DNA of 43,506 nt from Cellvibrionaceae bacterium. GTDB taxonomy: Bacteria > Pseudomonadota > Gammaproteobacteria > Pseudomonadales > Cellvibrionaceae. Shown piece by piece: positions 34,786 to 41,581 of this stretch. The stretch is from positions 1 through 43,506 of the forward strand of contig JAOXRV010000653.1 in the NCBI GenBank assembly GCA_025800435.1. Direction: 5' to 3'. The first letter of the stretch is position 1; every line of letters begins with the position of its first letter. The notes under the pieces were generated by a model that had not been told where the DNA came from, did not search any database, and saw only the letters and a program-made list of their open reading frames with translations. The position numbers were made by a program, and so were the translations under genes.

Positions 34786-37700
34786 ATGACCATCACTCTG
34801 CAAGTGTTTACCGCCACTGACACCGACCGCAAGGTTGATCTGCAAAACCAAAGCGTATACGCCGGCGCCAGCTATGAATTTTCAGGCACTGCTGAGCCAG
34901 GCGGCCAGGTAAAAATTTTTGATACAGATAATCTGTTCGCAGTAGCAGATGTGGCTGCCGATGGTAGCTGGAGTCATCAAGTTGATAGCATTAAACCGGG
35001 GGGGCACGAATTTACGGCCGCAGCCTATGATAGCAATGCTTCACTTGTCGGGCGCAGTGAGTCTTTTGCGCTAACGGCTGAAACCGTCGCGGCGCCTAAA
35101 CCGGTTGAGTTGTCCAACTATGCCAACTACCTGGGCGATGCAGGGTCAGAGTCGGTTAGTGGCAAAAATGCCGAGAATATTGATTTGGGTGAGGGCGATA
35201 ATTCTCTTAGTCTCAGCGGTTATGTGTACGACATCATTGCCGGTGCAGGCGACGATGTGGTTAATGTGGGCTCGGTGCACTGGAGCTATTCCAGCAACCC
35301 CGGTGTTCACCTGGGTGGCGGTAACAACACCTTTAGCAGCGACGGTATGATGCAAAGCCAAATTTTTGAAACCGGTGATGGCAACGATAATGTCACTATT
35401 GGTGGTGCATTCGGCTACAGCAGATATTACCTAAGCGACGCCGACTTTGGTGCGGGTAACGACACTCTGACCCTTAGCAGCAACCGTTATGCGGATATCG
35501 ACATGGGTGACGGTGACGATACCGTGACTAAAGGCGATACCGATAGTCGATCTAGCTTTCACTATGGCGAGCTAGATATGGGTGAGGGTAATAATACCGT
35601 TGATCTGAGCGGCTATATTTTCGGTGATATCAAAACCGGCAGCGGTAATGACAGCATTGTGCTCGCTGCTGACGTCTATTCCAATGTCGATGCTGGTGCT
35701 GGCAATAACTCGATCAATATATCGGGAACTATGAACGGTGAGCTAACTGTGGGTGACGGCAATGATAATATTGTCATTGATGGAAAAATCGGCAACCTTT
35801 CAGTGGGCGGGGGTGATAACACCATCGACGTAAGCGAAGTCAGTCATATTTCAGCCGGTGCAGGTAACGATACTGTCAAAGTCGGTCAGACGCGTTACGA
35901 AAGCGTCGATTCAGTCAACTTGGGTGATGGCGATAATACCCTGAAAAGTAGCGGTATTGTGGAGGAATATCACGGCGGAGATGGCAACGATACTATTGAT
36001 GCTTACGCAGTTTATGCGGCTAATTTGGGTGATGGCGATAACTCCCTCAGCCTCAGTGGTTACGCCTATGACATTATTGCCGGTGCTGGTGACGATGTGA
36101 TTGAGGTGGACTCAATATGTTGGAGCTATTCCAGTAACCCAGGTGTTGACCTGGGTGACGGTGATAACACCTTTGTCAGCGAAGGGCGGGTTAACAGCGA
36201 ATATTTTAAAACCGGTGATGGTAACGATAATGTCACTATTGGTGGTGCATTCGGCTACAGCAGATATTACCTAAGCGACGCCGACTTTGGTGCGGGTAAC
36301 GACACCCTGACCCTTAGCAGCAACCGTTATGCGGATATCGACATGGGTGACGGTGACGATACCTTTAAATCTGTTTCAACCCCCAGGAATTATCATCATG
36401 GTGATGTCGATATGGGTGAAGGCGATAATGAGGTAGTAATTTCGAACGGCCAAATTCATGGGGGTATAACAGCCGGAGAGGGTGATGACACGGTTTATGT
36501 TGGCGGCTCCATGACGGGTGATATTAATGTCAGTGGCGGCGACAATAAAGTCGTGGTAGCAAATATTTCCGGTAATGTTACCAGCGGTGACGGCGATGAT
36601 GTGGTTGGTGTTGTAGATTTGCTTAGCGGTTTGTTGGACACGGGTGACGGCAATGATACGGTTTTGGCCAATAGCCTTGACTATGGTGCACAGATAAATC
36701 TGGGTAGTGGCAGTGACGAGCTGGAACTGTCGAATAGTGGATACGGTGTCGTAAATGGTGGTGATGGCATCGATACCCTGCGGCTTAATGATGTCAGCTT
36801 AGCCCAGTGGAATGCGAATAGCGGTGATATTCAAAATCGGGTTTCGGGGTTTGAGGTGGTGATATTGGCCGATAATCTTGTGGTGTCTTCACCAACACCC
36901 AAGGTCAGTTTTTATCGCGCTGTACAGGCTGATGGTAGCTTGACAGGGTTTAGTGGCACTAATATGCCCGTTGCCGTTATTGGTATCTTATCGAACCGAC
37001 TGCAGTACAATCAGGCAATTGAAATTAGCACCGATGGTGGTTTGATTTGGGACGAAGTTGAAGTTGATGGACTTCAATGGCGTTTTGATAATGACAGTGA
37101 ACAAAATGGCAGCTTTAGCTACCAGATTCGTATTGTCGAGGGCGACGAGCAACTTGGAGAGCTCGTTGAGCAGCAGGTAATAATTGAAACTGTGATCCAT
37201 GAAACCTCAGGTGCAGATGAGCTAGTCACTGTTAAACCCCAGGGTGATACTAACAATAATGATTCCGAAGCCAATGACTCAGTAGCTGACGATATTGACA
37301 AGGTTCAAGTGGAAGCATCAGCAGATGCACAAGGCGATAGACCCGATGGTGCTGAATTAGCGCAAGATACAACATCGAATACAACGGTGCTTAATACTCA
37401 AGCTAATCGTGGCCCTAGTATTGAATCCATTGAAGATAATGTGGGTGTTATTCAGGGGGAGCTCGAAAACGGCGGCCATACGGATGATGACATACCAGCC
37501 TTAAGCGGCACGGTCGGAGCCTTCGAGCAGGTCGAAATTTATGATAACGGTGTTTTGACCGGCACCGTGTTTGCAAATTCACAGGGTGCTTGGCGCTATT
37601 CTCCGACCACAGCGCTGCCCGAGGGCGAACACAAATTTAATATTGTGGTTATTGATCTCGATGGCAATCGCAGTGAGCCAAGCGAAGAATTTAATATAGT

Positions 37701-39582
37701 TGTCGATCGCACGGCGGAGGTTGTCACTGACTTTCGGGCGCTGGATGATGTCGGTGCCCAAGTGGGCCTGATTGGCCAGGGTGAAACTACGGATGATCAA
37801 CAGCCTACCATTCGAGGTGGCGGCTCAGTCGGTGCCAAGGTAGAAATTTACGATAATGGAACCCTACTTGGCGCCACAATTGTGGATGCAAACGGCGAGT
37901 GGGAGTTTAGCTCTGTGTTGGCGCTCGGTGAGCATCGCCTGGTGGCTTATCATACCGACTTGGCTGGTAACACTGGCCCGGCCTCGGAAGAGCTTTACTT
38001 TATTGTCGGGCTGGATAATGCTGAGCCGGTGGCTGGGGTAACAATCCTGGATGGTGGTGACGAGCACTTGTCGTCGATAGAACTCAGCGCCAAAGTGGGC
38101 GTTGAAATCGAGTTGAGTGATGACATTAAAGTGGGTGACCGGGTTGATGTGGATGTCAACGGTGATGGTATCGCCGATGGCAGCTATACAGTCACTGGCG
38201 ACGATATCGGCAAGGTGATTCAGGTTGATATCGACGGCAGTGAATACGCAATCGCTAATGATAACTCGGTAACCGCCACCGCCGTTGTGGTTAATGAAAA
38301 TGGGCTGGCCAGTGATGGTGTAAGCGATAGCAGTAACACCGGCCCGCGCGGGCTCGCCGGTATTGAAGCGACCAATTTGCAAGATGCAAGTTATACCCAT
38401 TACCAATACTGGTATGTGGGCCAAAAAAGATACGAGTCGGGCGGTGATAGCGGTGAAGCCGGTCGCGCCGCTGTTGCTGTTGATCAGCTAATTGCCGATG
38501 GCTCAGAAGAGCTGGTGTTGGGTTTGCGCGGCCTGCCGGATCATTGGTTCGTAACCGATTTGGCCGGCAATCGGGCAGATTTTGTCAATGGTTACGCTGA
38601 TGTGTCTAAGCTTAACTACGCTGGCGACTTTTACTTCCACTCGGAAATTGGTCTGTCCCCCTACAACCCAGGCTCAACACCCCCACCTGAAGTCGATACT
38701 TCTGAGTACCATAAATTAATTGCCTCTGAATTGGATTCAGCCAGTTTCACAGTGACATTTGAAGCCCAAACCCGGGATGTTGTGACTGGCCAGTTATCAG
38801 CCAAGCTAAGCGCCGAGTTTGAAATGGGTCAGGTAACTACTCTTCAGCTGTCCTATTGGGCCAGCCCCTTAATCCTCGACCTAGATGGCGATGGGGTAGA
38901 AACAGCCGGCCTAGCCGAGGGCGTGCAATTTGATATTGACGCCGACGGCAGTGACGATCGTATTGGCTGGGTGGGCAGCGATGATGCATTGTTGGTGCGC
39001 GATCTGAACGGCAATGGTTTGATCGATAACGGCGCTGAGCTATTTGGGGATTCAAGCGTAACCTCAAGTGGACGGGCCGAACACGGCTTTGCCGCCCTGG
39101 CCGATTTGGATAGCAATGCCGATGGGGTGTTTGACAGCAGTGACACCACTTACCATGAGTTGCAGATTTGGCAGGACCGCAATAGCGACGGCATTAGCCA
39201 GGCCAATGAGCTGACCGGCCTGGCGCAAGTGGGGGTGGCCTCGATTGATTTGACCGCCACGGAGATTGCTGAATACAGCAATGGTAACAAGCATGGTCTG
39301 CGTGCTAGCTGGACCGATAACAGCGGCCAACAGCACCAGATCGACGATGTGTGGTTTGCAATGGCCCCGAGCGCTGCTGCCAGCCCCGCGCTGGAAGATT
39401 TACTGGTGCCGAACGAGGCCAGCTTGGATGGCTTGTTACCAGTCACCCAGATCGCTAATGGCGCCGCTATTTCAACCATTACAACAACTGCAAGCAGCCA
39501 GGCAGACTCTGCGGTGCTGGCAAGCTTGGATAATCTGCGCTTAGCTCACACGATCGAGCTTGAAACCAGCCAGGGCGTATAG
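34786..39582 (+). CDS. Large RTX-like/calcium-binding repeat protein with Ig-like domains
   Basis: 1598 aa; about 27 repeats with GxGx(D/N)(N/D) core from residue ~130 to ~680; Ig-like modules (DDIPALSGTVGAFEQVEIYDNGVLTGTVFANSQGAWRYSP...; DDQQPTIRGGGSVGAKVEIYDNGTLLG...); C-terminal SPLILDLDGDGVETAG...DLNGNGLIDNGAELFGD. No obvious Sec signal peptide. Confidence 0.88.
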   Translation: MTITLQVFTATDTDRKVDLQNQSVYAGASYEFSGTAEPGGQVKIFDTDNLFAVADVAADGSWSHQVDSIKPGGHEFTAAAYDSNASLVGRSESFALTAETVAAPKPVELSNYANYLGDAGSESVSGKNAENIDLGEGDNSLSLSGYVYDIIAGAGDDVVNVGSVHWSYSSNPGVHLGGGNNTFSSDGMMQSQIFETGDGNDNVTIGGAFGYSRYYLSDADFGAGNDTLTLSSNRYADIDMGDGDDTVTKGDTDSRSSFHYGELDMGEGNNTVDLSGYIFGDIKTGSGNDSIVLAADVYSNVDAGAGNNSINISGTMNGELTVGDGNDNIVIDGKIGNLSVGGGDNTIDVSEVSHISAGAGNDTVKVGQTRYESVDSVNLGDGDNTLKSSGIVEEYHGGDGNDTIDAYAVYAANLGDGDNSLSLSGYAYDIIAGAGDDVIEVDSICWSYSSNPGVDLGDGDNTFVSEGRVNSEYFKTGDGNDNVTIGGAFGYSRYYLSDADFGAGNDTLTLSSNRYADIDMGDGDDTFKSVSTPRNYHHGDVDMGEGDNEVVISNGQIHGGITAGEGDDTVYVGGSMTGDINVSGGDNKVVVANISGNVTSGDGDDVVGVVDLLSGLLDTGDGNDTVLANSLDYGAQINLGSGSDELELSNSGYGVVNGGDGIDTLRLNDVSLAQWNANSGDIQNRVSGFEVVILADNLVVSSPTPKVSFYRAVQADGSLTGFSGTNMPVAVIGILSNRLQYNQAIEISTDGGLIWDEVEVDGLQWRFDNDSEQNGSFSYQIRIVEGDEQLGELVEQQVIIETVIHETSGADELVTVKPQGDTNNNDSEANDSVADDIDKVQVEASADAQGDRPDGAELAQDTTSNTTVLNTQANRGPSIESIEDNVGVIQGELENGGHTDDDIPALSGTVGAFEQVEIYDNGVLTGTVFANSQGAWRYSPTTALPEGEHKFNIVVIDLDGNRSEPSEEFNIVVDRTAEVVTDFRALDDVGAQVGLIGQGETTDDQQPTIRGGGSVGAKVEIYDNGTLLGATIVDANGEWEFSSVLALGEHRLVAYHTDLAGNTGPASEELYFIVGLDNAEPVAGVTILDGGDEHLSSIELSAKVGVEIELSDDIKVGDRVDVDVNGDGIADGSYTVTGDDIGKVIQVDIDGSEYAIANDNSVTATAVVVNENGLASDGVSDSSNTGPRGLAGIEATNLQDASYTHYQYWYVGQKRYESGGDSGEAGRAAVAVDQLIADGSEELVLGLRGLPDHWFVTDLAGNRADFVNGYADVSKLNYAGDFYFHSEIGLSPYNPGSTPPPEVDTSEYHKLIASELDSASFTVTFEAQTRDVVTGQLSAKLSAEFEMGQVTTLQLSYWASPLILDLDGDGVETAGLAEGVQFDIDADGSDDRIGWVGSDDALLVRDLNGNGLIDNGAELFGDSSVTSSGRAEHGFAALADLDSNADGVFDSSDTTYHELQIWQDRNSDGISQANELTGLAQVGVASIDLTATEIAEYSNGNKHGLRASWTDNSGQQHQIDDVWFAMAPSAAASPALEDLLVPNEASLDGLLPVTQIANGAAISTITTTASSQADSAVLASLDNLRLAHTIELETSQGV
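35369..35523 (+). repeat. Near-identical internal direct repeat, copy 1
   Basis: 155 nt; identical to 36209-36363 except 2 positions (35382, 35466). Confidence 0.9.
36209..36363 (+). repeat. Near-identical internal direct repeat, copy 2
   Basis: 155 nt; offset from copy 1 exactly 840 bp. Confidence 0.9.
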
Positions 39583-39634: not shown

Positions 39635-39656
39635 GAGTTGTTCAGAGGTACCCTAG
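39635..39656. repeat. Degenerate end of the MITE-like family overlapping the NRAMP-like stop codon
   Basis: gagttgttcagaggtaccctag vs family end gagttattcagaggtgccct-TA. Confidence 0.5.
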
Positions 39657-40855
39657 AACAGCACCCACAATTTATATAACCCCAGCGCGCAGACCACCGC
39701 GACCACCATAAGCCCTAATAAATTGGCGAGCCAGCCATTGCGATATTGCCCCAGCAGCTTTTGCTGATTAACCGCAATTAATAAAAACACGGCAATCAGC
39801 GGCAGTAACAGGCCATTAGCCGCCTGAGCGAAAATAATAGCGGCCAGTGGTTTGCTGCCGGCGATTGCAAAGCCGGCGCCACTGACCAGTACCGCCAACC
39901 ACACCAGCCGAAAAATTGGGCTGCTAAAACTGATCTTCCAACCCATCGCACCACATACCGCATAAGCCGCGGCTAAAGGCGCGGTAATCGCACTGGTAAG
40001 ACCGGCGGCGAACATACCGGCGGCAAAGCAGTATTTGGCGGCGGGGCCCAGCAGCGGCTCCAGTTGTTGGGCCAGCTTGCTGGGGCTAAAGCTTTCGGCC
40101 TGGCCAAAAAAAGCGGTCGCCGCAGTGGCCACAATGGCCAGGGTGATCAAACCGCCAAAACCGATGGATAGGCCCGTATCCCAGCGGCTGTGGCTGAGGG
40201 CTTCATCAATATTGTCGTTGCCTGCTTCTGGGTAGCGTTGGCAGACGCTGCTGGCGTGCAGAAATAAATTATAGGGCACCACCGTGGTACCAATTAGGGC
40301 GATCACCAATAAGGTGCTGCCCTCAGGTAGGCTTGGGGTAAATAAGCCGCTGAATATGCCGCTCCAATCAGGCTGTATCCACAGCAGGGTGGCTAAAAAC
40401 ACCAGACTCATCAACAACACCAAGCCAATTAATACCCGCTCCAGTAACCGGTATTTGCCACTGGCCAATAAGCCCAGGGCCAGGGCCGCAATAATGGCCG
40501 CCGCCGTGCCACTGGATATATCTAATACTGCGCTGATACCGAGACCAGCGCCGGCAATATTGCCGGTTTCATAGGCTGCGTTACCAATGCCGATGGCCGC
40601 CACGATTAGGGCGATGGCCAGTTTTTGCAGTAGCGGTTTATCAAAACTTTCGCGCACCGCTTCGGCCAAGCCTTTGCCGGTGGCCAGTCCTAAGCGTGCG
40701 GCCATCTCTTGCAGCACAATGGTGGCGATTACTGAAAACAGCAAAGCCCACAGCAGGGTAAAGCCAAAGCCGGCGCCGGCCTTGCTGGCGGTGGCGACGG
40801 TACCGGGGCCGATAAAGGCAGCGGCGACAAGCAGGCCGGGGCCGAGTTTTTTCAC
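39653..40855 (-). CDS. NRAMP-family-like transporter lacking canonical metal-site residues
   Basis: 400 aa multi-TM; TM1 AAAFIGPGTVATASKAGAGFGFTLLWALLFSVIATIVLQEMAARLG and TM6 LIGTTVVPYNLFLHASSVCQR align to NRAMP TM1 (DPGN) and TM6 (MPHN) regions. Confidence 0.85.
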   Translation of the reverse strand: MKKLGPGLLVAAAFIGPGTVATASKAGAGFGFTLLWALLFSVIATIVLQEMAARLGLATGKGLAEAVRESFDKPLLQKLAIALIVAAIGIGNAAYETGNIAGAGLGISAVLDISSGTAAAIIAALALGLLASGKYRLLERVLIGLVLLMSLVFLATLLWIQPDWSGIFSGLFTPSLPEGSTLLVIALIGTTVVPYNLFLHASSVCQRYPEAGNDNIDEALSHSRWDTGLSIGFGGLITLAIVATAATAFFGQAESFSPSKLAQQLEPLLGPAAKYCFAAGMFAAGLTSAITAPLAAAYAVCGAMGWKISFSSPIFRLVWLAVLVSGAGFAIAGSKPLAAIIFAQAANGLLLPLIAVFLLIAVNQQKLLGQYRNGWLANLLGLMVVAVVCALGLYKLWVLF

Positions 40856-40858
40856 AGT

Positions 40859-41581
40859 TTAATCCTTATTCGTGCGCATAAATACCGAGCGCAGCCAGCC
40901 CCAAAAACTATTGCCGTGCATTACATAGCGGTCTAGATCCTGCTGGTTTTGCACATAGTGTTCGCCATCGGTGAACATTAGCTCGCGCTTTAACATGCGC
41001 CGTTTTGGGTCTAGGGTTTTAATAATTTTTGCGGGGTTACCGCCGACCACGCTATTGGCGGGTACATCTTTAACCACCACCGCACCGGCGGCCACCACCG
41101 AGTTTTCACCGATGGTAACACCCTTGCCGACTTTGGCGCCGTGGCCAATCCAGACATTGTCTTCTAACACGATGGGCTTGCTACAGCGAAACGGGCGCAG
41201 TCGATTATAGAGCCCGTGCCAGTCGCTATCGGCAATATAGCAGTCGGCGGCAAACATACAGTTATCGCCAATTTCGATGCTGGCAGCGGAGGTAATGGTG
41301 GTGCCGGGCGATAATAAACAATAGCTGCCAATGGTGATGCGGCCGTCGAGGTTTTTACCGCTCCAGGTGGTTAGCCGCACTGGCTTATATTTAGAGCTGA
41401 TAATATGGGGGTAATCGCCAATCTTAATTTGGCGGCCGAACACCTCTACTGTCTGGGGCTGTAAAATTGCCGGGGTGGTGCCCATGGCATCAAACTGGGG
41501 GCGCAAAAAGCGCTCTATCCACCAGCCTTGGTATTTGCTGATCCAGTATTTTACCCAAAAGGGTCGGTGTTCCCGGCGCAT
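40859..41581 (-). CDS. Left-handed beta-helix (hexapeptide) acyltransferase, WcaF-like
   Basis: 240 aa; [42 protein letters not shown]...[52 protein letters not shown]. Confidence 0.88.

What the first reader, a model, noticed from the sequence alone, without database searches (positions are those of the whole stretch)
39653..40855. NRAMP-like transporter with all canonical metal-binding motif residues replaced
NRAMP transporters coordinate Mn/Fe with Asp and Asn of TM1 DPGN and Met of TM6 MPH, with a nearby His linked to proton coupling. Aligning by eye, this protein has IGPGTVATASKAGA in place of (V)DPGNFATNIAAGA and VVPYNLFLH in place of VMPHNLYLH: D->G, N->T, M->V, H->Y. The fold signature remains (GPG kink, NLFLH). 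The substrate is therefore unlikely to be classical Mn2+/Fe2+, or the mechanism differs.
Basis: partly seen in the sequence, partly recalled or inferred. Interest (0 to 1): 0.6.

Follow-up and report, generated by a model that had tools for sequence, protein, structure and literature searches.

The report
NRAMP-like transporter probably importing 5-oxoproline
This bacterium carries a protein shaped like a metal importer but without the metal-binding residues; its relatives across bacteria and salt-loving archaea sit beside enzymes that break down 5-oxoproline (pyroglutamate), so it probably imports that small molecule rather than manganese or iron.

Summary
An intact 400-codon gene (39653-40855, minus strand) encodes a PF01566/NRAMP protein with G16-P17-G18-T19 for DPGN and V193-P194-Y195 for MPH; N99 also replaces the TM3 glutamate. 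This is no local oddity. In 103 aligned clade members (bacteria and haloarchaea), GPG, N99, T190, T191, V193, Y195, N196 and Q344 are invariant, and at least 589 genome stretches encode relatives. The clade forms its own branch, apart from canonical MntH, the NRMT Mg transporter and the YcsG/PxpT group. Replaced-motif 'Nramp-related' groups are already described (PMC12873925), so the kind is known. New here: the clade repeatedly sits next to one of two unrelated 5-oxoprolinase-type enzymes, PxpABC or a HyuA-HyuB protein (28 of 80 GTDB loci; 8 of 16 sampled Pseudomonadota members; 3 of 4 haloarchaeal plasmid copies; 0 of 11 MntH controls). The window's genome has pxpABC on another contig. Best explanation: a 5-oxoproline importer, converging with or anciently related to PxpT. 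Caveats: no transport data; the window gene lies in a sub-branch without operon linkage; HyuAB enzymes act on several cyclic amides; Mn import has been claimed for YcsG and MumT.

The parts
39653..40855 (-). Gene of the NRAMP-related transporter, 400 aa, GTG start
   Evidence: Intact ORF; PF01566 325 bits; orthologues 75-77% identical over all 400 residues; AF2 model pLDDT 88.7
40799..40810 (-). TM1 unwound segment G16-P17-G18-T19 in place of DPGN
   Evidence: Site table: GPG in 103/103 clade members, T (97) or S (6); helix break at residues 15-16 in the model
40559..40561 (-). TM3 N99, in place of the TM3 glutamate (DraNramp E134)
   Evidence: 103/103 Asn; also Asn in the YcsG-like group
40268..40288 (-). 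TM6 unwound segment T190-T191-V192-V193-P194-Y195-N196 in place of A-T-V-M-P-H-V/N
   Evidence: T190, T191, V193, Y195, N196 invariant in 103; helix break at 192-193
40256..40258 (-). H200, aligned with DraNramp H237, retained
   Evidence: 97/103 His
39812..39826 (-). TM10 Q344...N347-G348 (DraNramp Q378, L381, C382)
   Evidence: Q 103/103, N 102/103, G 97/103
40863..40867 (-). AAGGA, likely ribosome-binding site 7 bases before the GTG start, inside the end of the upstream gene
   Evidence: Sequence read directly
40859..41581 (-). Upstream co-directional gene, hexapeptide acyltransferase, 3 bases before the transporter; not seen beside the transporter in the other fetched loci of the genus

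Best explanation
The protein is a LeuT-fold inner-membrane importer of the PF01566 superfamily whose clade has given up the metal site and most likely carries 5-oxoproline (pyroglutamate), delivering it to a cytoplasmic 5-oxoprolinase that makes glutamate. Shown here: the fold, the replaced site, the clade and its fixed residues, and the operon linkage of clade members to PxpABC and to HyuA-HyuB enzymes. Inferred: that the carboxylate of 5-oxoproline is held by backbone amides of the unwound GPG of TM1 (as the GSG/GxG of APC amino-acid carriers does; established knowledge, not computed here), that N99, T190/T191, Y195 and Q344 line the pocket, and that the window protein shares the substrate of its operon-linked relatives. 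Coupling ion unknown.
For: 1) Operon linkage to PxpABC: in 23 of 80 GTDB loci the order is transporter-pxpA-pxpB-pxpC, in L097 pxpA-x-transporter-pxpB-pxpC, and in L042 pxpABC follow about 2 kb downstream; the families were confirmed on representatives. 2) Linkage to an unrelated enzyme, HyuA-HyuB (hydantoinase/oxoprolinase): L078, L079, L102, L110, L117, L119, L120, G010, G021, and HyuA+HyuB in three haloarchaea; in Haloarcula hispanica a Glu/Leu/Phe/Val dehydrogenase lies close by. 3) Of 11 checked transporter genomes without pxpA, 10 have a Hydantoinase_B protein (pxpA status for nine of them, not searched for G142 and G405). 4) 43 of 50 transporter genomes without adjacent pxpABC have pxpA elsewhere or not directly adjacent; the window's genome has pxpABC plus two D-glutamate cyclases on contig C37. 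5) 0 of 11 MntH control loci show either enzyme in 1.5 kb flanks. 6) The distant YcsG/PxpT group, needed for growth on 5-oxoproline, shares G56-P57-G58, N134, T228, Y232 and N381-G382 with this clade. 7) DraNramp D56G has no Mn transport.
Against: The window gene itself is not beside a 5-oxoprolinase and lies in a 20-row sub-branch with no linkage. pxpA is common anyway: 24 of 45 relatives without the transporter have it, and the association there is weak (Fisher p 0.056). HyuA-HyuB enzymes also act on N-methylhydantoin, caprolactam and others; the closest solved one is an N-methylhydantoinase, so those operons alone do not name the substrate. L045's genome (1.9 Mb, MAG) has neither enzyme. 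No assay exists for this clade.
Confidence: 0.66

Rival explanations
1. It imports a divalent metal (Mn2+ or Mg2+) through a rebuilt site, and the 5-oxoprolinase operons merely need the metal, as proposed for MumT with urea carboxylase and for MntG/YcsG.
For: Overexpressed YcsG raises cell Mn (PMC10448178); the mumT deletion lowers it (PMC5050338); it is the only NRAMP match above the family cut-off in the genome.
Against: No acidic or soft side chain remains at the canonical ligand positions; D56G abolishes Mn transport in DraNramp; EleNRMT, which carries Mg2+, keeps and needs the Asp; PxpT is required for growth on 5-oxoproline; the metal idea does not predict linkage to two unrelated enzymes sharing a lactam-type substrate.
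Confidence: 0.14
2. It imports a small cyclic amide or amino acid other than L-5-oxoproline (5-oxo-D-proline, a hydantoin, proline-like lactams), with substrate varying between sub-branches.
For: HyuA-HyuB enzymes cover several cyclic amides; two D-glutamate cyclases flank pxpABC in the window's genome; the window's sub-branch has no linkage.
Against: PxpABC, the ATP-dependent 5-oxoprolinase, is the commonest partner, and the binding-site residues do not vary between pxp-linked, HyuAB-linked and unlinked members.
Confidence: 0.17
3. A transporter relic or non-transporting sensor without substrate.
For: All canonical side-chain ligands on TM1 and TM6 are gone.
Against: Intact frame, strong conservation of pocket residues over bacteria and archaea, confident full-length fold with both helix breaks.
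Confidence: 0.03

Closest known systems
Uncharacterised 'Nramp-related' G-motif groups of Ray, Berry and Gaudet 2026 (PMC12873925)
   Same: PF01566 proteins without DPGN/MPH and without the proton path; that paper already describes them as a paraphyletic, diverse set
   Different: Which of their groups holds this clade could not be checked (figure not held); they name a substrate only for NRMT-like and, hypothetically, MntG
PxpT / YcsG (MntG) / PxpG
   Same: PF01566, linked to pxpABC, G-P-G at the Asp site, Asn on TM3, Tyr at the TM6 His position
   Different: Only 20-23% identity (reference group taken from annotated pxp operons), GPGF and GTxGGY instead of GPGT and TTVVPY, own branch; sisterhood not rejected (AU p 0.16)
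EleNRMT (Mg2+ carrier, PDB 7qia)
   Same: 30% identity, Thr at A227, Gln at Q378, N-G after it
   Different: EleNRMT keeps Asp on TM1 and Glu on TM3; here Gly and Asn
Canonical MntH/SLC11 (DraNramp, BfraNramp)
   Same: Fold (TM-score mostly 0.85-0.9), H237 and Q378
   Different: D56, N59, M230, H232, E134 and the TM3/TM9 charges all replaced or not conserved

Membership tests
PF01566 Nramp superfamily | Profile match over the whole length and LeuT fold with broken TM1 and TM6 | tested here: met
   325 bits against 29.8; Foldseek best hits all NRAMP; breaks at 15-16 and 192-193
Canonical SLC11/MntH metal transporters | DPGN on TM1 and A..MPH on TM6 | tested here: not met
   GPGT and TTVVPY; MntH model 202.6 bits against cut-off 430
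Canonical SLC11/MntH metal transporters | Proton path: TM3 E124, D131, E134; TM9 R352, R353 | tested here: not met
   Mostly I/V, E/Q, N and non-conserved residues in the clade
NRMT Mg2+ transporters | DxxG on TM1 and TxxA/T on TM6 | tested here: not met
   GxxT and TxxV
YcsG/MntG/PxpT group | Falls in one clade with pxp-linked YcsG-like proteins | tested here: inconclusive
   Separate branch in both trees (98/98 and 96/95), union not rejected (p 0.16); reference group chosen by operon, not by a verified YcsG sequence
YcsG/MntG/PxpT group | Operon with pxpABC | tested here: not met
   Met for many clade members, not for the window gene, whose genome has pxpABC on contig C37
5-oxoproline transporters (function) | Transport of 5-oxoproline | not testable with these tools
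   Needs an assay

The most novel reading that the evidence does not exclude
A second, separate NRAMP-related clade, spread over Bacteria and haloarchaea and annotated today as 'divalent metal transporter', is an organic-acid (5-oxoproline) carrier that partners with two unrelated 5-oxoprolinases; metal transport in NRAMPs would then be one derived use of a superfamily in which GPG-type amino-acid-like carriers are common or ancestral.
Probability: 0.45. Interest if true: 0.72.

Novelty: new variant of a known kind. Interest (0 to 1): 0.52.

Why it matters
Hundreds of genomes carry this protein, and copies in public records are named 'Nramp family divalent metal transporter' (the window protein passes NCBIfam NF037982). 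If the prediction holds, that name is wrong for the clade, and the clade gives a clean comparison, on one fold, of how an organic-acid site and a metal site interconvert. It would also bear directly on the open dispute whether YcsG/PxpT-type NRAMPs carry manganese or 5-oxoproline, because the two groups share the same replaced residues.

Tried and rejected
Reading the window's own neighbours as a clue: the acyltransferase and fatty-acid hydroxylase upstream are not beside the transporter in the other fetched loci of the genus. G049 first seemed to have both enzymes flanking the transporter; the 1270-aa neighbour is a DUF11 protein, so only pxpABC counts. Presence of pxpA in relatives as proof: too weak alone (p 0.056). 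Using B. subtilis YcsG itself: its sequence could not be obtained (the YcsG-FabL model is not in the sequence set), so YcsG-like proteins from annotated pxp operons stood in. The paper on the discovery of PxpABC is not held.

Full report
Observation. The gene at 39653-40855 (minus strand) is an intact 400-codon frame starting with GTG, preceded by AAGGA and separated by three bases from the stop of an upstream hexapeptide acyltransferase. It matches PF01566 over its full length (325 bits) and falls far below the curated MntH cut-off (202.6 against 430) while passing the broad 'Nramp family divalent metal transporter' model (125.6 against 50). Sequence comparison with solved structures gives only NRAMPs (profile).

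Site by site. With DraNramp numbering (window residue in brackets): D56 is Gly (16), P57 and G58 are kept, N59 is Thr (19), E134 is Asn (99), A227 is Thr (190), M230 is Val (193), H232 is Tyr (195), H237 is kept (His 200), and Q378 is kept (Gln 344), followed by N347-G348. The proton-path charges of TM3 and TM9 are not conserved.

How widespread. Plasmids of Haloferax, Haloarcula and other haloarchaea carry 46-50% identical copies. Across 103 aligned clade members G56, P57, G58, N134, T227, T228, V230, Y232, N233 and Q378 never vary. Such invariance argues for a defined substrate site, not decay.

Position in the family. In a 74-row tree the clade is one branch (98/98), as is the YcsG-like group (100/100); canonical NRAMPs and EleNRMT form another branch. 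A smaller tree gives 96/95 for the clade; a union with the YcsG-like group is not rejected (AU p 0.16). Identity is about 28% to MntH, 30% to EleNRMT and 20-23% to YcsG-like proteins. Replaced-motif groups are already known: a 2026 preprint describes a paraphyletic, diverse set of Nramp-related proteins lacking both motif and proton path, some called G-motif groups, with MntG in G-motif 3 and the rest uncharacterised apart from NRMT (PMC12873925).

Genomic context. ORF clustering around the 80 loci showed three genes recurring directly downstream. They are homologues of pxpA, pxpB and pxpC; the families were confirmed on representatives and by similarity for the rest. In 23 loci the order is transporter-A-B-C, L097 has A-x-transporter-B-C, and L042 has A, B and C about 2 kb downstream. 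Three further loci (L078, L079, L102) instead have a fused 1230-1251-aa HyuA-HyuB protein of the hydantoinase/oxoprolinase family, and their genomes lack pxpA. Among 16 clade members from an even sample of 398 genomes of the phylum, four adjoin HyuAB and four adjoin pxpAB; none of 11 MntH controls does. Three of four haloarchaeal copies are followed at once by HyuA and HyuB. On a quick tree the states pxp, HyuAB and none need nine changes, which suggests that the partner enzyme was swapped repeatedly.

The window's own genome. pxpABC lies on contig C37 between two D-glutamate cyclase genes. The transporter is not linked to it, and all 20 members of its sub-branch on that tree are unlinked. Of 50 genomes whose transporter is not followed directly by pxpABC, 43 have pxpA; of 11 transporter genomes checked because pxpA was absent or not adjacent, ten have Hydantoinase_B. 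pxpA is, however, present in 24 of 45 relatives without the transporter (p 0.056), so co-occurrence is only supporting.

Structure. An AlphaFold2 model from 47 clade sequences (pLDDT 88.7, pTM 0.88) breaks TM1 at residues 15-16 and TM6 at 192-193. Its best matches are NRAMPs (TM-score mostly 0.85-0.9), with APC amino-acid carriers (ApcT, AdiC) and the hydantoin carrier Mhp1 as more distant hits. Coordinates could not be inspected, so pocket statements are inference.

Mechanism. DraNramp D56G has no Mn transport (PMC13060092), and EleNRMT needs its Asp (PMC8806188). PxpT is required for growth of C. glutamicum on 5-oxoproline (PMC13274462); YcsG and MumT have been reported as Mn importers, so the question is disputed for the neighbouring group. 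The clade here shares G-P-G, the TM3 Asn, the TM6 Tyr and N-G with the YcsG-like group although otherwise very distant. The simplest account is that these residues form part of a 5-oxoproline site, whether by descent or convergence. Linkage to two unrelated enzyme types that open lactam-like rings points to the small molecule, not to a metal.

Verdict. A real and conserved feature of a known kind of protein (Nramp-related), in a clade for which the searched literature showed no proposed substrate. Predicted 5-oxoproline importer, confidence about two in three for the window protein.

Noticed in passing
34786-39582 (+): 1598-aa repeat-rich protein with bacterial Ig-like (Big_13) and bacterial antifreeze-protein repeat (AFP_2) matches and many GDGND-type repeats, convergent with the transporter gene.
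   Followed up: partly
L169 (own genome, contig C37), 324-4437: pxpABC lies between two different D-glutamate cyclase genes (PF07286 and PF14336), suggesting that D-glutamate is funnelled through 5-oxoproline.
   Followed up: no
L190, L191, L192, L193: Haloarchaeal copies have Gly at the TM6 proline (DraNramp P231) and a CopG-type regulator just upstream of the transporter.
   Followed up: no
L126, L127: Another replaced-motif group (LGPGS on TM1; ATTLPPNT on TM6) in genomes of the same order, about 33% identical to the window protein; in L126's genome it lies beside a glutathione S-transferase gene.
   Followed up: partly
L082, L091, L094, L096, L099, L103, L104, L106, L107: A conserved gene of about 370 aa without assigned family here precedes the transporter-pxpABC operon in Flavobacteriaceae (cluster 14).
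   Followed up: no
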